Part shown: piece by piece, positions 17,190 to 40,939 of the stretch | How positions within the stretch are numbered: the stretch's first letter is position 1 | Layout: every line of letters starts with the position of its first letter | Source: Antedon mediterranea | Taxonomy: Eukaryota > Echinodermata > Crinoidea > Comatulida > Antedonidae | Direction: 5' to 3' | Length of the DNA stretch: 64,000 bases | Assembly (NCBI RefSeq): GCF_964355755.1 | Contig: NC_092675.1 | Location: 19,110,912-19,174,911 of the forward strand | Translations under genes and position numbers: made by a program | The notes under the pieces: generated by a model | Database searches by the model: none | What the model saw: only the letters and a program-made list of their open reading frames with translations | What the model was told of the DNA's origin: nothing

Positions 17190-18598
17190 ATGGCGAACCT
17201 ACATAGGGTACGAGATGCTCTTGTTGCTGCCTATATATCAGATGTTCTGGACGAGGAAGAATTCATTATGTTGTATAGTATGAATTCCCCAAGTAATCCT
17301 GATTTTCAGTATAAAAGTGATGAATATCAATTCAACTTGGATAAATTCAACGATGATGAATGCAACAGCTATTTCAGGTAAGCCGACCATCAGGCTAAAT
17401 CAGGGTAGCACTTTATTTATCAATTTATAATCTACTACTAGGTAGGGCTAGATAACGTTAAGGCATTATAAAGCTTAAATACATTTAACATTGGTTACTA
17501 ACAATTATACTTCCATATACCTTGAAGGTATTGCTTTCTTTTATGTATAGCCCTAGTAGGCTACTATACTATCTACAGAAGCTACTATTTAGTAATAAAT
17601 GTTGATTAAATATTAAATTAATATATGATGCCCATAACATGTCCAGTATCATGTATGTTATCCATTATGAGATTTAAAATATACTGTGTATTATTATTTC
17701 CCTTAGATTCCAGAAAAATGATATCTACCGGCTGAAACATGCTTTGGGGGTGCCACCAACTGTAATTCTGGAGAATAAGTCGAAAATTGATGGACTTGAG
17801 GCTTTGTGCATCACACTCCAAAGGTATGCATATCCTTGTAGATATGGAGATCTTATCAAGGACTATGGACGTTCAGTACCACAGCTTTACTTGGCGTTTA
17901 AGTGGATGACCAACTACATCTTCGACATCCATAGACATCGGATCTCATCCTTAGATCAGCCATGGTTATCCCCACAACATTTACAGGAATTTGCTGAGGC
18001 AACACACACAAAGGGTGCTGCTTTGAGGAACTGTTGGGGGTTCGTTGATGGAACCGTAAGGCCAATATGCCGACCAAATCAGCATCAACAAGTTATGTAT
18101 AATGGTCACAAAAGAATCCATGCCATGAAATTCCAGTCAGTGACAGCTCCCAATGGCCTCATAGCTCACCTATATGGACCTGTGGAAGGGAGGAGACATG
18201 ATGCATTTCTCCTTCGTGAATCGGGTCTGTTGACAGAGCTTGAGGCCAGATCACATGATCCACAGGGAAATGTATTGTGCGTGTATGGTGATCCTGCGTA
18301 CCCATTGCGCCCACAATTGCAAGCACCTTTCCCGACGGTACGGATAACACCAGAACAAGTGGCCTTCAACGTGGCAATGTCCAAAGTCAGAATTAGCGTT
18401 GAATGGCTATTTGGTGACATTGTAAATATATTTAAATTTACAGACTATAAGAAGTCTCAGAAAGTGCAATTGAGTGCATGTGGCAAAATGTACATTGTTT
18501 CTGGAATACTTACAAATGCACATACATGTGTGTATAAGAACAATACATCTGCCTATTTTGAACTTGAACCGCCATCGCTGGAAGAATATTTTCAATGA
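17190..18598 (+). CDS. Harbinger DDE transposase
   Basis: Two exons, 17190-17377 (ATG in context AACATGG) and 17707-18598 (stop TGA), give 359 codons. The N-terminal part is acidic. The second exon carries the DDE_4/HARBI1 catalytic fold: first Asp in GFVDGT (Asp177), second Asp in YGDPAYPL (Asp258) and Glu in VEWLFG (Glu295), with the conserved GPVEGRRHDA block (Asp228) between. These are the expected residues and spacing, so the catalytic core looks intact. The enzyme cuts and rejoins the element ends; in this superfamily it needs the Myb-like partner for nuclear import and DNA binding. Intron 1 (17378-17706) has consensus GTAAGC and TTAG sites. Confidence 0.93.
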
Positions 18599-27726: not shown

Positions 27727-30700
27727 CTAGGTGAAATTGTTAGTACATCTTTCAACATGTCTCTCCAATTCTTGCTTGTCAGCAATAGATCTCTGACAAC
27801 TAAAAACAAATAAAACCACAATATTTATATCACAATCAGTAAGCAATTAGTAGATTAGAAAACATGTCTAAATCTTCTTACTCCTTAGTGTTAAAATTGT
27901 AAGTATACATATATTTCAGATCATCAGCGATAAATTACCTTTCTAGGCAGAGTTCCAAAATTCTTTCTGAAGCTTTAGTTAAGCTCTTTTCTGTACAGTT
28001 TAGCCCCTTTTCAACAAAAATACACCAGGCCTAGTGAAGGTCATCTACAGTAGTGTAGTTCTTTTCTGTTCTTTTCAAAACTATTAGCTGCTTACTTTTC
28101 AAATTGTTGAGGTACAATTTATTCAAAGTTTCATAAGGTCTAGATAAGTCATTCTACTGTGCATTAGAAACTTGTTCATTCAACGCAACTCCATGTAGCT
28201 CAATGTCGCCTGGAAAACAGGCTTAACTATCAAACTCTCACAAGGCACTAACTTCATCATATTGCAGTATACCGTACTGTACATCCAGTACTGTCTTTCC
28301 AGAAGCCATTGTCATGCTCATCATGTTTTTTAATATTCTTTCTAGAAAAAGTATACTGCACCAGGAAAAATTCTTTCTCAAGGCCTAGTTAATTTCTTCA
28401 ATAATGTGGTCTGTTTCATCAAAACACATCAGGCACAATGCTATCTTGGGAGCCCCAAATTAAGAACTGTACTGGTCTTTTCATCAACCTTCAGAGACAG
28501 TTAACTTTTATGCTAAATTTCTTAACATGAGCTCTTTGATATTGTTATCTCATTACATGTAGTTTTTCACAAGACATAATTAACTTCGACATCATGATCT
28601 TATGTAATACATCAAAAATATTTGTTTTACTTTTTAAGGTCTTCTGGATTTCATTCTTTCAAATTCATTTCATTTCATTCTTCAAATCACAAAAAATTAA
28701 ACTTATACACATACTCTTTGATAGTATGATCATCGGAAACACACTGGTCCAATTCTTTCACAATTCTCTTCTTCTCATTTCATAACATACATCAGGCAGT
28801 GTTCGTGCTCAATATCTACTTAACCTCTTCAATATTACCTCTTCACTACCGATAGTTTTTGTAACTATCAAATAGTAATACTTTTCTATTGGCTCTTTGC
28901 ATAAACATAGAACAGGCACATTCCTTCACAAAGTTGTGGCATGTTTGACAAACATACATTAGTTACAATTATTTCAAATCTTAGTTAAACTCAATATATA
29001 TCTCTATCAACTAGAGTATCATCATTAGATGTTTGCACTATGTGCATTCATGCATGACCAATAACTTAACATACACACTCTGAAAGATGTAATATTCAAA
29101 CTCGTATAACCACAAACAAACATTGATGGTAACCTAACTTACAAACATTTTCTCAGACCAAACCACACCTGAATGTTACGGTTCAGCACACAGCAAAATT
29201 GGCCAGTCTTGCAACAAGTGCTGTAAAACAACTTACATTGGACATTCGGAGTCAGCGTTTTTCAACACAGGGCTAGAAGCATCCACACCATCAATTTCAA
29301 CATCACCATCAATGAACATATCATTACCACCATAGTTTACACCACGTCTAATCATCTGACAGAAAGAAAACACAAAATAGTGTACATAACTTGTTCATTT
29401 AAACAAAATAAATATAATTTTGTCAGTGATATTATGCCTTTGACTAGCGGCATATTGAAAAAGCTTTCTTCTAACAAAATAAAAAGTAAAGAGATATGGA
29501 AGGTCAGGTTAAATCTTGACATTACTTTATATGTGAACTTGCTGATTGATACATTTACAAATGGTGTTCTATATGGTTTGTTTATTTCCTTAAAAGCATT
29601 TCCACCAGCAATATTGTTGCTAATAGCCACCTATGTACTAACATAAACTATACACAATTTGTTGAGGAAGCATAAATACATACCTTGCCCCGAGGAGGAA
29701 CTTCATGAATGTAATAACTTTTGTATCCCTGAAAGAGGAAGCATATTGAAAACTGTCAAAATAATAACTTTACACCTCAATACCAGATATATTGGTTTAT
29801 TATTAATTGTTAATAGATATGATGGAATGTAAAGTAGTGTCAACTAATATCAATACTAACCGGTGGTGGTTGTTTGATTCTTCTGTCACCTTCATAGTAA
29901 TTCACCTGAATATAAATAATAATAGGATGGTTTAATATTACTAGGTAAATGCAATAACAAATGAAAAAAAAAATCAATCCAAGCAATGAAATATTTCATA
30001 AATTAGAAAGTTAAAAAGCTAAAGTGTACAAAACACAAAATCAGTAGGTACCTGTTCTTGCAGATCTTTTGCAATTTTTCTCAAATTGTGCAACTCCTCT
30101 TTAGCTTCTGCAAGTTGACCGGCGGTGTGCTGACGATCTCTGCGTTCCTGGTTGAAATCTGATTGGAATGCCATGTTCTGCTGCTGAAGCAGATCCACTT
30201 GTTCTTTCATTCTCTGTGATACATCATCGTCTGCTCCTCTTGGAATCCTCATCTCATCAATTCCAACAGCTGCTGCTGCTGCTCCACGGTGAATTTCAAA
30301 CTCACGAGGTTGCTGCATGCTTTGTTCAAGTTCCTGTTAACAAACCCCAAACAATTTGATTAGAAGAAAATAGAAAAAAACTCCAACAGCTGCTGCTGCT
30401 GCTCCACGGTGAATCTAAAACTCCTGAGGTTGCTGCATGCTTTGTTTAAGTTCCTGTTAATAAATCACAAACAATTTGAGTAGAAGAAAAAAAAAAAATC
30501 CAACAGCCGCTGCTGCTGCTGCTCCATGATGAATTTCAAACTCCCAATGTTGCTGCATGCTTTGTTCAAGTTCCTAACCCTAAACAATTTCATTAGTAAA
30601 TGGTAACAATCAAATTATGCAAATTCTCAAGAAATTTACTGTATCATATCAAGTAAATAATAACTGGAGATTATCTTTACGTCCCACAAAGACGTTACTA

Positions 30701-33700
30701 AAAGTACAAGTTACTCATACACTTCACATAAGAACACAACAGTGTAGTTAGACACTTATTGCCATGTTAAATATAAATTTATTTTAGTGTGCAATATTCC
30801 TAGGAATACAGCATTTTGGTAATCAAAAATCCTCAATTTAATGCTGATTTAGACAAGCAAGCAATACTGACGTGTCCCACTCTTATCCATATATTTAAAT
30901 CATCTGATCTTTCAGAATACCAACCTGATTCAATCTGCTGATTTCCTCTTCATTTTCAGTTTTCTTGCTGATTAACATGTGAACCCATTTCTCAAGTCTT
31001 GCTGATCTATCTCGATGTTCATCTCGTTCCAACTTTAAAATAATAATGTTATTTAATTAAGATAATCAAAACATTTTGTGGAAAAACATTCATATATATA
31101 TATTCACTCCTGGCTAGCAAATGTTATGAATACAAATGAAATAAAAGCATTTATTTATTTGTTACACTTGTTATGTTGAAGTTGACTCGATGACAAAAGT
31201 TAGAGCTTACCTCAATGGCATCAATTCTTGTTTTAGCTTGAGTCAACATCTGATCAAACTCTCTTTGTTTTTTGTCCAGAATTGATTCTTGTTTATTTTC
31301 TACCGCCATCCGTTGCATGCTTTCTTGCAGCTTTTGATCAAGATCTTGCTTGAACTGTTGTTTGACTTCTTCAGCTTTTTTAAGCTTAGCTTCGTAACTA
31401 GACTTCATTCCGGCATAATGTTGATCCCATTCATTGTTCACTTTTAGAATCTTACAATTTAATATTTTCATAAATTAATTTCAGGGTTTCTACTACTTTA
31501 TTGTGTCATTCTACAAACTTGTGCCTCAAAACTATTTAGAGAGTGATAAATATTATGTCAAAATGTTAATATTAAAATGAGGCCTTATTTTAGGGGGGAA
31601 GCTATCAAAATATTAAAGATTGTTTACTCCAACCATTTTCTTAAAACTAGAGGTATACATTCTTCATAAACCAAACATCTTTTTTTAAACAATTGTTTAC
31701 TTTTAGAAGGCAATGCATGTTTTAATATTATACACACTAGATTTATTGTTGTCACAAATATAGAAATGCTTTTTATATAGTTTCAAATTCATCAAAACTT
31801 AATGTTTAACATAACTGTGCCTGTAGTACAAAGTATCACCAAGCAATGGGAGTATCCAATATTCCTTTATGGTGCCGTTTTTGTTTTTCTTTAAATGTTA
31901 TATTGATATTATTCCTACCTCGTCGACCTGTTTTTTCAATGATGCATTTTCCTTTCTTAGATTCACAATAACAAGGTTGTCTTGTGGTTTGTTGTCTGAA
32001 GATGTTCCTTGCTTTGTCTCCACATCCTGTGAAGCATATCATTATTATATTATTCATGATATTAATAATAATTTCTGTGTATTAGTCAACTATCTCATGG
32101 GACTTTCTAAAAAAACCAGAAATGTATTCTTTCTTGGATGCAATGCACGGTGATAAGTAATTTGACCAATCATGTGAAAGATTAACCGAAACCGTCACTT
32201 GTGATTGGTCTCTTGTGTTACGCATACTTTGTTTCTTTGCGTACGTTGTTTTGTTGATTTAAAGAGAAACAATCTTTATTTATTATAAAGCTTTGAATTT
32301 GATTAGCCAGTATTTAACATAGAACTATTTTGCTAAATTATAATATAATATAGTTTGATCATAATTAATACCATATTGAAGATCATTTATTTATTTATTC
32401 CGGGAGTACCTGCTTATATGCGCAATATAAATTAAGTATCATTATTATTATAAATACTTAGCACTTTTTGGCAGTAAACAATACTGGTACTGTGACAAAG
32501 ACAGGATTTAAAACCAGGACCTTGTCACTGGAAAGCAAAACTACAATACATGCCACTGACAGAACTATTTAAAATAAATCCTTGCTCCATATATTAATTT
32601 CATTTCATTCAATATTTATTTTTATTAAAAATTAAAAATTTCGTAAATTTAACGATTAATATAAGGTAAATTATATAGACTAAAGACTTTTTTTAGGAAT
32701 CAAATTAGAAGTGAAAATATCTGGATCATTTTTTTAAACCTAGCATGAACATTAAATTTGTTAATTTATGATAATACAGTGCAGACATTTGTTTATCATG
32801 TATTGCCATAGCCATTTCTTAGAGGAAGTTCAAGTGATCTAACTCAGCGTCGATCTAAATAGAGCAGAAAATCTAAACAGAAAAGTCCCAAATGTTTTGG
32901 CTTCATTTCCTTGTTGATATTAATTATATTTCTTGTTTACTTAAGCTCTGTCTACACTATAGAAAAGTGTGATGTGCCCAACCAAATATGGTAGTGATAT
33001 GACATCATCATCTCCATATATGGGCACATCATATTTTATGTCACATTTGATAGTTTAGACAGAGCTTAAGTATAACCTGAGATTCAAATTTATAATGGGT
33101 TATTTTTGTTTCAAAGTTTTAAATTTTGGTTATTTCATTTTCAATCAATAATATTATACAATACTGTTAGAAGATTATATTACAAGTATTAGTAATATTA
33201 TGTTTGTGGTACACTGTAATGCCTGTAATTCCTAAAGTGAAGATTCAATATTTCCTTCCTTTCTAGTAAATATATGATGTAGCGGATAAAAACATGCTTT
33301 TGTTCCATATTGCCTACAGTAATAATAATAATAAATAACATTTATAAAGCGCAAGAGACAAAGGTTTCAAAGCGCTGTGTTTTCCAAGATCTGTGCAAGT
33401 AGTAGCGTGTGATTATGCTTCTCTGAAGAGATGAGTTTTGAGTTTAGTTTTAAATGTGGTAACAGATTTTGATGAGCGTATTTCGAGGGGTAGAGTGTTC
33501 CAGAGTTTTGGGGCTGCGACAGCGAAAGCACGATCACCGTAAAACCGAGTTCTGGAACGGGGTCCAGGTTTTAGAAGAAGTCTGCAGGATGAACGAAGCG
33601 AAGAGTTGGTTGACGGAGTAATGATGTCACATATGTAGGCTGGAGCACATCCGTTGATGGCCTTATATGTCAGCAACAGGATTTTAAAACGAATGCGCTG

Positions 33701-36700
33701 ATCTACAGGCAACCAGTGTAAGTCACGTAAAACTGGAGAAATATGTTCAAGTACTGCTACTAAGTATTGCTTTGAATATTAAACTTGAGCTTAGTATAGA
33801 ATTCTAAAGCTCTGTCTACACTATCAAACTTTATTTGACAAAAAATGTGATATGTCCATATACGGACATGATGTTGTCATGTCACTACCATATTTAAGCA
33901 TATCATTACCAGTACCATATTTTGAGACACTTGTCAAACTAGATAGTGTGGACAGAGCTTAACAAAGAAAACTCAATCTAGTGAATTTAATTAAAATTTG
34001 CATTGAAAGGATGTTGAGTGTAAAGAAATTAATTGAGGAGAAACAAATAGATAATGTACCTAACAAACCATTAGTATGTCTCATTTTCTCTTTTTTTCTT
34101 AATAAAAAAATAATATTTACAATACAAAAATAATAAATTACATAGGTAAATGATTTTGAAAATAACCATTCATTACTTATTATAAATTTATATTACATAA
34201 ATACATTTTAAGTGAAATTGTATACCTACCTATTGAAATAGGAAATAAGTTGACCTTTATTATATAAATATTGATTGATTGCTATTGTTTGTACACCAAA
34301 ATAATGTAAGGGAATTTTACTGTATATATTTTTGAATTGTGGATATAGTAACTTCTGTTCTCTTTGGTTGATAAAGAGATCTGCACAAACCCAATAAAGA
34401 TATTACAATATGATAATGTTACAGGAAATAATAGTATTTCTAAATGTAATGGAATAAAATATACAGGTGTTTATAAATAGATTTTCATTACAACAAATCC
34501 AAATTATCTTCTTATTATCTAAACAAATCACTTCACAACCGAATGACCATACCAATTGTTTGATATTTTGTTATTCTGTCTCGAATGGTGTGTTCTCACT
34601 CAAATTGTTTACAACTTTAAAAATCTAATTAATCGATTAAGATGGCCATATTTCATGAAATTGCCACAAAAATAAAGACAGCCATCATGACTGTATGTGT
34701 AAAATCTAAAATAGGAACCCTAAACATAAAAGATTGCATTTCTGTGTATAACACCATTCATTTCTTATGCCGGAAATGTATGTAAACGTATTTCTGAGAT
34801 CAATACATTTTACTGATTATTGATTATATGTACAGTGCAAATATAGTTTGACTGTAAACACAACTATCTTTTTAATAATATGTCAGGCATACATTTCTAT
34901 GAAAACCTGAAAGGGGAAACTGCAAATATGCAGTGAAAGGTTGACAACATCACATGACATTGGTTGGTAGTAAAATAAACTTCACAAGCAGTGATGTGGG
35001 TTCGATTGGTCTGCTTTTTTCCGTTTTTTTTTCTTTTTGCAAAATTGTTGTTTTTAGTTTCATGGTTGCATTTCTCATGGTTTTCACAAGCGCCATGAGC
35101 ACTTTATGGATAAGTGCGCTCTATAAATCTTAATTATTATTATATTTATTATTTATATTATTACTTACAAGTTTTTCTTCCTTTCTCAATGCATGTGCAT
35201 CACCTGTTGTAACAACTTCAAAACTATATAAGTTTTCATCTTCTTTCACTTTCTTCAAATCTTCAAGTTCATTTTTTAGACGTCTTGCTTCCAATCTGAA
35301 ATTACATTACAAATCATTAAAAAAATTAGTAGATATTAACAAACATGTTTTAAAGTAAATTGCTTTAAAATCAGACAACACATGACAAAATCTTGGTCAA
35401 ATGAATTACTATACACAGAAACAAAAATATTATTTTAATAATTTATACTTTAGAGCATTACTGTATGCATCAAAGCACAATGTCTGAATTTGATGAAACA
35501 CATGATGTCACTAAAATGACTGAGTAATGTTAAAGATGCCAACTTAACCTGTTGCCAGGTAGACTTACCTAAGATCATTGATTGTTTGGTTCTTGTCTTC
35601 AAGATCTTCCTTCAATCGTTGGTTTTGTTCAATTGTTGCATGCCTGAGTGTCTAAAGAAAAATATGTAATGTATGTATAATGATCCACAGAAGACACCTT
35701 TACAAGAAGAGCAAAGATCTGCCATGCCTAACTCAAGAAGAATATATAACTGAAGAAATTCATTTTGAGAAGCTTTCTGTGGAGTTTAAATATTGAATAA
35801 TAAGAATCTTTGGAGGAGAGAAGAAAACACTAAAAAGTATTATATTATGCTTACTTTTAGTTGTTTCAATTGCTTGTCCTGTTGTATGCTTTGTGGTAAC
35901 ATCTTGGCCAATCCATTAGTTAACTCAGAGCTCCCAAACTGTGTTCTGCAAATCTTTTCAATGTCTTTGATTTGCAATGAGAGACTTGTGTCATGTTCTT
36001 GTTCACTCTATTAAACACATGGAATAGTACTATTAAATGATCCAAGTGTACAGTATGATCTTAATTGCTGCAACATTTTGCACCTTTTTTAATAATGTTG
36101 TGCTCACTAATTTGTTGGAAATAAATGTAATGAAGTATACTGGTTATATATGTTTATAGAAATATGTTAACAATCAATAAGTGTTTGTAACAAGGTTGCA
36201 GAAAGCATACAATGAAAAAGATTTGCATATTACCATTGAGCTAGTAGAATCCATTCTCTCTTGAACACCAAAGCTTCTCACAGACTCTTGCTTGGTAACA
36301 TTAGACTCAATAGATTGAATACCAGTAGGCTCTCTAGAATGAATACTTGAGTTCTTCAGTGATGGAATTCCTGACATTGTGTCACACTCAGATGATTTAG
36401 GCTTTGGATTCAAAGTTGTTGATGTCTCCTGATGTTTCATACTCCACTCTTCCACATATTTAGGTCTGAGTTTAGATGCTGTTAATAATGTAAATATAGC
36501 GTATTACTGTGTAGCCATTTATGACAGTTTAATCAAAACCTCCCTTGGTGCATCATTTACAATTCTACACAATTTTAGAAGTTTAAAAATTGTTTTGCAA
36601 GTGCAACATAATTAGAAAAGCCTAGTCTAGAAATAACATAAATGGAACAATGGATGGCATTCTAATATTATGATTCTTTGGTACTAGGATACTAATTTAG

Positions 36701-38881
36701 ATTAACAATGACTGCAAACCTTCAATGATTTTATCTGCTACATCTTCTCTTCCAATGTCTTTCAATGCAGTCGCAAGCAGCTGGATAACATTATCTCCAT
36801 GCTTTAGATCATTCAACCAAATGTCAAAGAGTCCGTATATCCTCTCTGCTGGTGGTAATTTTGAGTTCACAGCAATCTGTTCTGAAGTTAAACCAAATTG
36901 TTCTGCAAGTTCCCGCCAATCATTTTTGCACTCAAAACTGACAGCATCAACAAACCATGGCAAATCATAATTGGTTGTTTCATTTCTTTCAAAAAAACCT
37001 AAAATATAAAGTCATCAATTTAAATCTTTATAAGGAATACACTGTATGTGCTTTACCCCAACCAATTGTGGTATTGGTTGTCTATGATGTCAGGATATTT
37101 TATAATGATTGGATTGTTAAACCTGATCCATCTATCTGTTTTACATTATCTCCATACCTGTTTGAAGCATTTCTGCAAGATCTAAACGTCCAGTTCTTTC
37201 CAGCACAGACACAAGTTTAGCATGAACATCTGAGGATGGAGTTTGTTTCTGTTTCCACAAGAGAAGAATTTGAAAGATCTGTTCCTTGGCAGATTCGTAC
37301 TCTTCTTGAACTCTGTCAACATCTTCAGTCTTGATGTCGAGTCGGAAGGCAAGGCTTCTCCAATTGGAGCCAAACTTATCAGCAAGACCCAGTAGAGTTT
37401 GATCTGATATTGATGAGTGTTTATCTAAAATGTTAAGTGGAAATAATATTTTGTTCACTATTAAGAACAAAATACTGATTTAAGATTTATGGCCACTTTT
37501 TTTAACACAAAATGTATCACATTTGACGGGCTTACCTCAAGAATTCAAATTTAGTGGGTTGGAATACACTTGAACCCCTCTTTTAGGACTCATATTAATT
37601 TTTATTAATATAATAATAATAATATATCAAAAATTTATTAAATAATATTCATCGCATAATATGCAATCTACGATAATTTAATTAATTGATATAACAAATT
37701 TATTAAATACATAACATCATTGGAATAAAAAGAACAAATCACATATCTACACATAATCATAACATCGTATACTCTATCTCTAACAATTTATTCAATCTTC
37801 TATCGACTAAAGCCGAAGTATAGTCGTTATCTCGGGACCGTTCTATGGCCACCACCAGGTAGGCTTACTTCATTAAGGCTTCTATGAATGGATGTACTGG
37901 TTGGGAGCAGGAACGCTAGTAGACCAAACCCAGTACCGTTTTGATTACGATCAATCGGGAAGTTACCTCATGACGTTAATTTCATAAACATCTTCATGTC
38001 GTACAACTACTCGTAACATTTTTTCTCAACTTTCTATCATCTAAAAGTCGTAGTTAGTCATGCCTCGGGTCACATTCTATGGTCACCGTACAGGTAGGCT
38101 ACTACATTAGTACTTCTATGAATGGATGACTAGCCGGTGACAATAACGCTAGTTGGTCATACCCAGTACCGTTTTGATTTTACGATCATTCGGGAAACCA
38201 CCTCACGACGAGGATACTTTTTTGTTAAAAGAACAGGACAATAAATGTTTAAACACTGCGACCAACGGTAACTTACAGTTAAATAGGGGTTCTACTGTGT
38301 ATATCACATTCATTTTTTAAATACACATTTTTAATTTGAAGCAGGCATAAATTTGTAAATAAATCTATCCTGAATACTTAATCAATAATAACCCATCAAA
38401 ACTTTATGAATACACAAGATTAGAATCATTTTAAATGATTATATAATCTTGAAGAATGAAATAATTGACAATTATTAACCATACTAAAAAACAATAAATA
38501 TTCTTACCAATGGTATGAATTGAAATGCTATTACTACATGATTCTGATGATGAAACAGAGGACAACTGCTGAGTCAAAATTCGGATAGTGCCTTTTAGTT
38601 TCTCTCCTTCTTTTCTTGACTCCACCAATGCCTCACCTAAAAATATAAAGCAGTAGTTTTTGGGAGTTTAAAAGGTTGTGAAATTGAATTGCTGGTATCT
38701 ATATAAATGCATTCATGCAAAGTTATAATAAGCCCATTTTTTACTTATTATTGCATAGGATCAACAATGGATGTTACTTACTGATGACATGTATTCCTTC
38801 GCTGGATCTTTTAAGTTTGTCATTTTCATTCTTCAGTATTCTGTTTTCTGCTAAGACTTCTTGATATGTTAGGTTATTCAT
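27727..38881 (-). CDS. Two Death domains + coiled coil + UBAN + NOA-type zinc finger protein
   Basis: Sixteen minus-strand exons give 800 codons: 38782-38881 (ATG), 38508-38636, 37158-37424, 36720-36998, 36234-36478, 35855-36007, 35569-35651, 35169-35295, 31919-32026, 31211-31450, 30925-31032, 30052-30333, 29861-29905, 29684-29728, 29237-29355, 27727-27799 (TAG). Death domain 1 spans about 78-163 (LADKFGSNWRSLAFRL, LLLWKQKQ, RTGRLDLAEML); Death domain 2 about 170-257 (NDWRELAEQFGLT, FDIWLNDL, IGREDVADKI); each sits in its own exon. A Ser-rich linker precedes a coiled coil (about 341-700) ending in a UBAN motif (FQSDFNQERRDR, 670-680), which binds Met1/Lys63-linked ubiquitin in NEMO, optineurin and ABIN proteins. 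Pro-rich NYYEGD/KQPPP follows. The C-terminus is a C2HC finger (Cys775, Cys778, His791, Cys795). Inferred role: cytosolic ubiquitin-sensing adaptor in NF-kappaB or cell-death signalling. Orthology among ABIN, NEMO and optineurin is not settled. Confidence 0.93.
27850..29236. other. Large last intron of the Death/UBAN gene
   Basis: AT-rich, with several loosely similar pyrimidine-rich segments (ttctttc, acatcaggca) but no supported exon or clear element. Confidence 0.4.
30381..30597 (-). repeat. Two tandem 120-bp copies of the 5' part of the UBAN exon
   Basis: The start of the UBAN-bearing exon and its splice acceptor (30262-30360) recur twice upstream in the same intron at an exact 120-bp period (for example GTTGCTGCATGC at about 30309, 30429 and 30549). 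Copy 2 keeps an acceptor (TTAACAG) but its frame hits TAG after about 12 codons. Copy 3 has lost the perfect acceptor context. Neither copy has a donor. They look like decayed tandem duplicates. Confidence 0.9.
32943..33067. mobile_element. MITE copy B (AGCTCTGTCTACACTAT family)
   Basis: Ends AAGCTCTGTCTACACTAT and its inverse ATAGTTTAGACAGAGCTT. The interior shares gatgtgcccaaccaaatatggtagtgatatgac-type sequence with copy A. Flanks read TTA and TAA. It lies in the 3.1-kb intron of the Death/UBAN gene. Confidence 0.88.
33320..33770 (-). pseudogene. LINE 3' fragment (reverse-transcriptase ORF C-terminus)
   Basis: The minus-strand frame at 33413-33712 encodes a typical C-terminal tail of LINE ORF2 proteins in invertebrates (LLLTYKAINGCAPAY, YGDRAFAVAAPKLWN, LKTHLFREA). 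It is followed toward lower coordinates by a short 3' UTR (cagcgctttgaaacc..gcgctttataaatgtt) and a TTATTATT tail at about 33319-33335. The 5' end is truncated, as usual. It lies in an intron of the Death/UBAN gene in the same orientation. The clade (CR1-, L2- or RTE-like) is undecided. Confidence 0.88.
33808..33959. mobile_element. MITE copy C with TAA target duplication
   Basis: Ends AGCTCTGTCTACACTATC and its inverse GATAGTGTGGACAGAGCT. Flanked by TAA at 33805-33807 and 33960-33962, the 3-bp TWA duplication typical of PIF/Harbinger elements. Third and best-bounded member of the family. Confidence 0.9.
35080..35160 (+). repeat. LINE-type 3' tail
   Basis: ccatgagcactttatggataagtgcgctctataaatcttaattattattat is a plus-strand 3' end of the kind seen in truncated LINE copies. 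No coding part remains. Confidence 0.5.
37830..38215. repeat. Diverged tandem duplication of about 220 bp
   Basis: Two copies share ttctatggccacc/ttctatggtcacc, caggtaggct, cttctatgaatggatg, aacgctagt, acccagtaccgttttgatt and acgatca..cgggaa. They lie in the intron between the second exon and the first Death exon. Non-coding and unclassified. Confidence 0.75.
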
Positions 38882-39260
38882 AATTCTATTTAAACAAAAT
38901 TGGATTTGTGATTTTTTTTATATGAAATTAAAACTTTGATCTTATAGTGCATTGCATAACTATAATCATTTTTTAATGGTATAACACAATAATATTTTGA
39001 TTTATAACTATTTTTGTAATGTGTAATTTGAAATCATCATTTAATGTGTATCTCTGGTCGATAATTAATAACATATCAATAAAAAAAAAATCACTTATTT
39101 TAAAAGTAACAGAACAATAATTGTGAAATAATCATTATCTAATAAAAAATTAATATTACTAAACTTTAATTTTAAAAATTATTAATTAGAAATTTCAAAA
39201 TCACATACTTACAAATAAAAAACAGTGAAGTGAAAGTACAGACATAAGAAATAGCAGGAA

Positions 39261-39271
39261 GGGGTTCCCCC
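39261..39271. promoter_or_regulatory. kappaB-type site in intron 1 of the Death/UBAN gene
   Basis: GGGGTTCCCCC at 39261-39271 fits the NF-kappaB consensus GGGRNWYYCC on either strand. Such G/C blocks are rare in this AT-rich DNA. Function is inferred. Confidence 0.5.
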
Positions 39272-40817
39272 TCTTGATTTACTACAGGGTGACAAGCATG
39301 TGTTCACTCATCATAGGATAAAATACCAGAATACTGTCATTGTCACATCTATTTTTATTTGTGACATAATGGTTTAATTTGGTTTGAAGATAATATCATA
39401 TCAAAGAAATATCTAGAAATGTCACGGATTTCATCATCAAAATAGAAATTTGTATTCTATTTGATAACAAAAATTTAAATTCAATGATAAAATAATAATG
39501 ATTATAAAATAATGAAAAAAACAGACCCTTTCACAATAATCTAAATACAGTACACACAGTTATTGCTTAATATTTCGCAACAGAGGATAAGCACTGGTTT
39601 GATTGAACTCCTACATGTAGTAAAAATGGTGGATAAAATTATGTGACAGAACTTTAAGTACTGGGACAGTCATAGTTAGAGGTGTAGGTGTTTGGTTTTA
39701 ATCATAATATATATATAAACACTGACAATGAAAGAGTGTACTGTTGTGCCAGGATTGTATTGTTAATCTAAACAATAATATATTATAAATTTGACTGTAT
39801 CCTCTTTGTGTTGTTGAATTTAATCTAATGAGTAAGTGTAAAGTACATATAACGGCAAAGAAGTTGTAGATTAGTTTGTATCTATTAAAAAATATAAATA
39901 ATTGTAGTTTTATTGAGACAGTATCACAATTTAGGTTTAATTTTAAGAATTTTTAATAAATCACTAACGATCATTTAATTTTTTCAAATTACAATCAAGT
40001 ACATTTTTTTTAGAAAATTCTTGAAAATGACTAATTGAGAAAGCATGTTACGAAAACTAATCTCCAGGATACCCGTTAATACTAGGACAACAACCTTTGA
40101 ATCCTGCTGCAATACCTATTATACAAACAATTGAAATATCAACAAAGTTTATAGGGAACTTCCAGTTTAAACTTTAATGTTCTAGTTTATTATGAAATAA
40201 ACAAAAAAAATATAGTGTGTGATCATGTGAACTTTATTGTTTCTCTTTGACATCAATGGCACAGTGCCACACTTATAAAGATATGTACAAGGATCACAAT
40301 CAAGAAAGTTACAACAATAAACAAATTAAATCAACTTTGGAAGACAATTATAAACATTGCTAAAATATAACCTAAAAAGTACTAATTAATATTTATTTCA
40401 TGGAATGTATTAAGATATTAAAAAAATTATTAAAACATTTCATTTCATACTTAAGAAACCTATATGTAATTCATTGTATGTTTAATTCAATACAGCTGAC
40501 TTTTTATTGGATGTTTAGTCATAATGTGTGTAGGAGGCATTATCTCATGTATAATCGTAATACAAATAAAATAGCACTAAAGCCGTTCCCCGCCTAAATA
40601 AAGAATGGAAAATCCACGTCACTAATATTAGGCCTGTTAGTGTTAAAAATGAGTGCTTTGTGCAGGTTTGTGTAGGTTACATGTACGTATTAGTGTGAGT
40701 TGGGAAGGTAAACACGTTTTTCTCGCTTTATTTTCATTTATTTTAATATTCTATCTAACATTTTAGTTACTTTAAAGTTTAAAAGACACAGCGGCGTTTA
40801 ATTTAGTATTTACTTAC

Positions 40818-40860
40818 CATCTTTATATGTCGTTTTTCCACAAATTGTGAACAAGAATAG
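40818..40860 (-). other. Probable 5' UTR exon of the Death/UBAN gene
   Basis: A minus-strand donor (GTAAGT, at 40812-40817) follows CATATAAAGATG. Joining it to the acceptor AAATAG just above 38881 places an ATG immediately before the splice, giving a four-codon upstream ORF that ends overlapping the main start (..TATGAATAA). The transcription start is not defined, so the upper bound is arbitrary. Confidence 0.45.
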
Positions 40861-40904
40861 TCACTGAATGAGCTTCGTCGTCATGAACTGCTAAAATGTA
40901 GAGA

Positions 40905-40915
40905 GGGGATTCCCC
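40905..40915. promoter_or_regulatory. Palindromic kappaB-type site upstream of the Death/UBAN gene
   Basis: GGGGATTCCCC is a full kappaB consensus. It lies about 90 bp upstream (transcript sense) of the inferred first splice donor. A CCAAT box on the minus strand (gaccaatag) lies about 20 bp further upstream. This is the position expected for a promoter site. Confidence 0.6.
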
Positions 40916-40939
40916 CTCAGAAAGCTTCTCTATTGGTCA

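What the first reader, a model, noticed from the sequence alone, without database searches (positions are those of the whole stretch)
27727..40918. A Death-Death-coiled coil-UBAN-zinc finger protein: possible undescribed NF-kappaB/cell-death adaptor
Sixteen phase-consistent exons encode one 800-aa protein with two Death domains (one per exon), a long coiled coil, a UBAN motif (DFxxERxDR) and a C-terminal C2HC finger of the NEMO/optineurin/ABIN type. The vertebrate UBAN proteins I know lack Death domains. Having both in one chain would link receptor-type Death-domain assembly directly to ubiquitin-chain reading without a separate adaptor. The domain calls come from the sequence; the signalling role is inference.
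Basis: partly seen in the sequence, partly recalled or inferred. Interest (0 to 1): 0.88.

Follow-up and report, generated by a model that had tools for sequence, protein, structure and literature searches.

The report
ABIN-type protein carrying two Death domains
A feather-star genome encodes what looks like its version of the inflammation brake ABIN-1/TNIP1, but with two Death domains (modules of the cell-death machinery) inserted near the front, so one protein could both read ubiquitin chains and plug straight into death-signalling complexes; no transcript has yet been checked.

Summary
The gene structure is real. Sixteen GT-AG exons (minus strand, 38881-27727) chain in phase into one 800-aa open frame. 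Exons 3 and 4 each encode a Death domain well above Pfam's cut-off. The genome is a crinoid's (exact hits to crinoid neuropeptide motifs) and holds separate NEMO and OPTN/TNIP2-like genes with no Death exon detected near them.

Exons 1-2, upstream of the Death exons, resemble the human TNIP1 N-terminus, so the Death pair sits inside an ABIN backbone rather than being a neighbouring gene fused in error; introns 4-7 are only 203-273 bp. Exons 3 and 4 are symmetric phase-1 cassettes; skipping them keeps the frame.

Most likely this is an ABIN-1-type A20/linear-ubiquitin adaptor with a second, Death-mediated docking route: a modified brake rather than an unrelated new adaptor. Domain identity is well supported; transcript and function are inferred. 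I found no published Death-ABIN chain in the open library, but other animals' genomes could not be searched.

The parts
38782..38881 (-). Exon 1 (codons 1-34): start and TNIP1-like N-terminal coil
   Evidence: resembles human TNIP1 ~24-60 together with exon 2
38508..38636 (-). Exon 2 (34-77): rest of the TNIP1-like N-terminal coil; symmetric 1-1
37158..37424 (-). Exon 3 (77-166): Death domain 1, symmetric phase 1-1, 267 bp
   Evidence: PF00531 51.2 bits; nearest solved PIDD1 7.5e-8, RIPK1 2e-6
36720..36998 (-). Exon 4 (166-259): Death domain 2, symmetric phase 1-1, 279 bp
   Evidence: PF00531 46.3 bits; six-helix model, Foldseek top ranks are Death domains of FADD, ankyrin, RIPK1, weak
36234..36478 (-). 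Exon 5 (259-340): Ser/Thr-rich linker, no TNIP1 similarity
35855..36007 (-). Exon 6 (341-391): helical region, weak similarity to TNIP1 ~150-250
35569..35651 (-). Exon 7 (392-419): coiled coil
35169..35295 (-). Exon 8 (419-461): coiled coil and a FEVV motif (444-447), possible LIR
   Evidence: LIR reading is inference
31919..32026 (-). Exon 9 (462-497): coil leading into AHD1
31211..31450 (-). Exon 10 (498-577): AHD1-like segment ILKVNNEWDQHY
   Evidence: exons 9-11 vs human TNIP1 score 159, shuffles 46 +/- 6.5
30925..31032 (-). Exon 11 (578-613): coil ending EEEISRLNQ, as in TNIP1/2
30052..30333 (-). Exon 12 (614-707): linker and UBAN motif DFNQERRDR (672-680)
   Evidence: phmmer PDB: TNIP2 5h07 0.00085, TNIP1 0.029-0.08; CC2-LZ 24.3 bits
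29861..29905 (-). Exon 13 (708-722): Pro-rich tail
29684..29728 (-). Exon 14 (723-737): Tyr/Pro-rich tail
29237..29355 (-). Exon 15 (738-777): acidic tail and first half of zinc finger (CPI)
27727..27799 (-). Exon 16 (777-800): second half of C2HC (NOA-type) finger and stop

Best explanation
The gene is a crinoid ABIN (TNIP1-type) protein into which a two-exon Death-Death cassette was shuffled between the N-terminal coil and the AHD1/UBAN coiled coil. It probably works as ABIN-1 does: a coiled-coil dimer that reads linear (M1) or K63 ubiquitin chains with its UBAN and brings A20 through AHD1 to restrain NF-kappaB and RIPK1-type death signalling. The Death pair would add ubiquitin-independent docking onto Death-domain assemblies (RIPK1/PIDD/FADD-like), so the brake can sit in the complex from the start. 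Shown: exon structure, Death domains, ABIN-like UBAN segment, separate NEMO and OPTN/TNIP2-like genes. Inferred: one transcript, A20 and ubiquitin binding, Death partners, inhibitory sign.
For: Sixteen in-phase GT-AG exons, 800 aa; joint openness about 10^-22 by chance. Death 51.2 and 46.3 bits against a cut-off of 22.6; Death 1 nearest PIDD1 and RIPK1. The UBAN region finds only TNIP2/TNIP1 among PDB chains although NEMO and OPTN chains are held (the latter surface with another query). Exons 9-11 align to human TNIP1 with score 159 against shuffles of 46 +/- 6.5; exons 1-2 score 65 against shuffles of 33.5 +/- 4.6 (max 60) and 399 coiled-coil windows (max 54), so ABIN-like sequence lies on both sides of the Death exons. 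Introns 4-7 are 203-273 bp, too short for a gene boundary. Exons 3 and 4 are symmetric 1-1 with lengths divisible by 3. Apart from Death domains, the genome search at E<=0.1 finds only this gene's own exons; NEMO at C9:20472928 and an OPTN/TNIP2-like gene at C4:86817 are separate. ABIN-1 is recruited to the TNF receptor complex by M1 ubiquitin and brings A20 (PMC7862295).
Against: No transcript evidence. The 3.1-kb intron 8, which holds a retrotransposon-like ORF, could hide a gene boundary between exons 1-8 and 9-16, although exon 9 has an in-frame stop just upstream and no ATG. The UBAN match is weak by statistics and below Pfam's cut-off. Exons 5-8 show little or no TNIP1 similarity. The crinoid protein ends in a TNIP2-like finger, so it is not a clean TNIP1 orthologue. 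The AlphaFold model of Death 1 is uninformative.
Confidence: 0.62

Rival explanations
1. Death-bearing and Death-less forms come from one gene by alternative splicing; the main product is an ordinary ABIN and the Death cassette is optional.
For: Exons 2, 3 and 4 are each symmetric (phase 1-1) with lengths divisible by 3, so skipping any of them keeps the frame.
Against: All their splice sites are good; no isoform data. It adds to the main explanation rather than excluding it.
Confidence: 0.2
2. One reading: a positive adaptor that links Death receptors to ubiquitin-driven NF-kappaB activation or cell death, as TRADD plus NEMO would do together.
For: Death domains nearest RIPK1 and PIDD1; UBAN-type motif present.
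Against: UBAN/AHD1 similarity is to ABIN, a restraining family (PMC7862295); no NEMO IKK-binding domain was returned by Pfam; a separate NEMO gene exists.
Confidence: 0.15
3. Two neighbouring genes: a coil-Death-Death gene (exons 1-8) and an ABIN gene (exons 9-16), wrongly joined across the 3.1-kb intron 8.
For: Intron 8 is the longest intron and contains a retrotransposon-like ORF; no RNA data.
Against: Exons 1-2 resemble the TNIP1 N-terminus; exon 8 ends in an open GT splice without a stop; exon 9 has no start and an in-frame stop just upstream.
Confidence: 0.1

Closest known systems
TNIP1 / ABIN-1 (vertebrate)
   Same: N-terminal coil, AHD1 segment (VNxxWDQH), DFxxERxDR UBAN with the EIxRLN segment before it, collinear order
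   Different: Two Death domains inserted after the N-terminal coil; C-terminal C2HC finger, which human TNIP1 lacks (from memory)
TNIP2 / ABIN-2
   Same: Best PDB match of the UBAN region (5h07); C-terminal NOA-type C2HC finger (from memory)
   Different: No Death domains; AHD1 wording here closer to TNIP1; a separate OPTN/TNIP2-like gene exists in this genome at C4:86817
NEMO / IKKgamma and optineurin
   Same: UBAN-type coiled coil plus C-terminal C2HC finger
   Different: No IKK-binding domain returned by Pfam; PDB NEMO and OPTN chains not matched; NEMO is a separate gene at C9:20472928
PIDD1 and RIPK1 Death domains
   Same: Nearest solved relatives of Death domain 1
   Different: Here a tandem pair without LRR, ZU5 or kinase domains, and attached to an ABIN coiled coil
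Death-domain hybrids of amphioxus and other marine invertebrates (PMC2575513, PMC2246300, PMC8195603)
   Same: Death domains recombined into new immune and apoptosis proteins
   Different: The partners named in the passages read are NACHT, caspase, TIR, NB-ARC and similar; TNIP does not occur in these papers' main texts

Membership tests
TNIP/ABIN | UBAN (ABIN-type) with DFxxERxDR | tested here: met
   DFNQERRDR 672-680; PDB phmmer returns TNIP2 0.00085 and TNIP1 0.029-0.08 as the only meaningful matches; Pfam CC2-LZ 24.3 bits is below its 35.3 cut-off
TNIP/ABIN | AHD1 (A20-binding) segment upstream of the UBAN | tested here: met
   Exons 9-11 vs human TNIP1, score 159 against shuffles of 46 +/- 6.5; human sequence recalled from memory
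TNIP/ABIN | TNIP1 N-terminal coil | tested here: inconclusive
   Score 65 exceeds all 500 shuffles and 399 coiled-coil windows, but the human N-terminus is from memory and unchecked
TNIP/ABIN | Binds A20 and M1/K63 ubiquitin | not testable with these tools
   Needs biochemistry
Death domain superfamily | Pfam PF00531 above cut-off | tested here: met
   51.2 and 46.3 bits, cut-off 22.6
Death domain superfamily | Six-helix Death fold | tested here: inconclusive
   Death 2: six helices, top 14 Foldseek ranks are Death domains but E>=0.16, pLDDT 63; Death 1 model poor
NEMO | N-terminal IKK-binding domain (Pfam NEMO) | tested here: not met
   Not returned by a whole-chain Pfam scan at E<=1
NOA-type C2HC finger | CxxC...HxxxC finger at the C-terminus | tested here: met
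   ECPICQRSIADKQELERHVERC, split over exons 15-16; only sub-threshold Pfam C2H2 matches

The most novel reading that the evidence does not exclude
A single chain that both joins Death-domain assemblies and reads ubiquitin chains, so that the ABIN/A20 brake is built into the death-signalling complex rather than recruited after ubiquitination; possibly an older echinoderm arrangement of the pathway in which the ABIN adaptor carried its own Death domains.
Probability: 0.3. Interest if true: 0.7.

Novelty: new variant of a known kind. Interest (0 to 1): 0.52.

Why it matters
In vertebrates, Death-domain assembly and ubiquitin reading sit on separate proteins joined in sequence (RIPK1 is modified, then ABIN-1 and A20 arrive). 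A natural fusion predicts a direct functional link between the two steps and gives a testable model of how restraint of cell death can be wired without waiting for ubiquitin. It also shows exon shuffling reaching the inhibitory arm of the pathway, and suggests which Death proteins ABIN might regulate in invertebrates.

Tried and rejected
NEMO or optineurin identity: rejected, since PDB matches were TNIP only and no NEMO IKK-binding domain was returned. A second copy of this gene: none found beyond its own exons and other Death exons. Coding sequence between 38881 and 40918: none found. Species from the mitochondrion: COX1 not in the assembly; the crinoid neuropeptide motifs settled it instead. 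Published Death-ABIN chain: the paper searches gave none; a TNIP1 homologue is induced by Vibrio in a sea anemone (PMC7654579), where the passage does not mention a Death domain in it. A search for the TNIP1 FEVV/LIR motif in papers gave none. AlphaFold of Death 1: uninformative. NCBIfam: nothing. Relatives of the proviral block in viral contigs: none. Whole-protein structure prediction was not attempted because the spliced protein is not readable from one frame of the window.

Full report
Observation. The minus strand from 38881 to 27727 holds sixteen exons with GT-AG borders and consistent phases, encoding 800 aa. Exon coordinates are in the parts list. The chance of all sixteen segments being open in the required frame is about 10^-22 from same-length stretches of the window, a rough figure because the exons were chosen. 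Donor sites rank high among local GTs.

Domains. Pfam returns Death (PF00531) twice, 51.2 bits for exon 3 and 46.3 for exon 4, against a cut-off of 22.6. Death 1 is nearest PIDD1 (7.5e-8) and RIPK1 (2e-6) among solved structures. A single-sequence AlphaFold model of Death 2 has six helices, and its top Foldseek ranks are Death domains of FADD, ankyrin and RIPK1, though at E 0.16 or worse and mean pLDDT 63; the model of Death 1 is uninformative. The UBAN motif DFNQERRDR lies at 672-680; Pfam's CC2-LZ model gives only 24.3 bits on the isolated segment, under its cut-off of 35.3. The finger ECPICQRSIADKQELERHVERC is assembled across exons 15 and 16.

Which family. The UBAN region finds TNIP2 (0.00085) and TNIP1 (0.029-0.08) and no NEMO or optineurin chain. 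Exons 9-11 align with human TNIP1 at 159 against shuffles of 46 +/- 6.5, including VNNEWDQHY against VNKQWDQHF. Exons 1-2 align with its N-terminus at 65, above 500 shuffles (max 60) and 399 coiled-coil windows (max 54). With that caveat, ABIN-like sequence flanks the Death exons on both sides.

One gene or two. Introns 4 to 7 are 203-273 bp, so Death exon 4 and exons 5-8 are in one gene. Intron 8 is 3.1 kb and contains a retrotransposon-like ORF; it is the only plausible gene boundary downstream of the Death exons. Exon 8 has no stop, exon 9 has no start and an in-frame stop just upstream, and the TNIP1-like N-terminus lies on the far side. Transcript data were not available.

Origin. Exons 3 and 4 are each symmetric phase-1 cassettes with lengths divisible by three, the usual signature of exon shuffling. 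The genome has at least 149 Death exons, many in tandem arrays. Removing the cassette restores an ABIN-like order.

Organism. Two crinoid neuropeptide motifs from PMC9793003 each occur once and exactly, with zero control matches: GLRFHKGAPFG at C5:24566751 and CFWRTCPVG at C4:25447225. The window is therefore from a feather star; the second motif is the Antedon mediterranea crinotocin. Separate UBAN-type genes are present: NEMO at C9:20472928 and an OPTN/TNIP2-like gene at C4:86817. No Death match lies within 100 kb of either. Matches to zf-A20 and to an RBR-ligase C-terminal model exist, but A20 and HOIP themselves were not identified.

Mechanism. ABIN-1 is recruited to the TNF receptor complex through M1 ubiquitin, brings A20 and restrains RIPK1-driven death (PMC7862295); AHD1 binds A20 and UBAN prefers M1 chains (PMC11940065). 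The crinoid protein keeps both segments, so a restraining role is the default. The Death pair most simply adds a docking route onto RIPK1-, PIDD- or FADD-like assemblies that does not need ubiquitin. This is inference.

Novelty. Open-library searches found Death domains joined to many partners in marine invertebrates (PMC2575513, PMC2246300, PMC8195603) but no ABIN fusion. No animal genome besides this one could be searched, so how widespread the arrangement is remains open. I file it as a new variant of a known kind.

Noticed in passing
G000 C3:17123015, C3:25165880, C4:16680685, C9:14129908, C5:16335301 (L003-L006): Five near-identical intronless blocks encode a coiled coil with a UBAN-like motif (QCEINKQDFMKEQADRQ; CC2-LZ 29.7 bits, below cut-off). 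For four of them an intronless family-B DNA polymerase ORF lies 37-126 kb away and a Death-domain ORF 45-86 kb away: probably an integrated large DNA virus carrying both UBAN- and Death-type proteins. Observed only.
   Followed up: partly
window 30262-30575: Tandem duplication of the start of exon 12. The extra copy at 30573 has its own AG acceptor and would lead to an early stop before the UBAN, so a truncated isoform is possible.
   Followed up: partly
window 35169-35295 (residues 444-447): FEVV preceded by acidic residues, like the LIR motif recalled from human TNIP1, but placed later in the chain; may be a conserved autophagy-receptor motif or chance.
   Followed up: no
L001/L010 (G000 C4:84000-92000): OPTN/TNIP2-like gene with NTNWQRYNDQRE, VNVYVEDFRKERKDRE and a C-terminal finger DDLQCPACFKSF...HLDTC; no Death match nearby.
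   Followed up: partly
window 17678-18595 and 33416-33778: A 306-aa ORF resembling a PIF/Harbinger-type transposase, and a retrotransposon-like ORF fragment inside intron 8 of the gene; both read by eye.
   Followed up: no
G000 contigs C3, C5, C9, C11: At least 149 Death-domain exons, many in tandem near-identical arrays, pointing to a large expansion in this crinoid.
   Followed up: no
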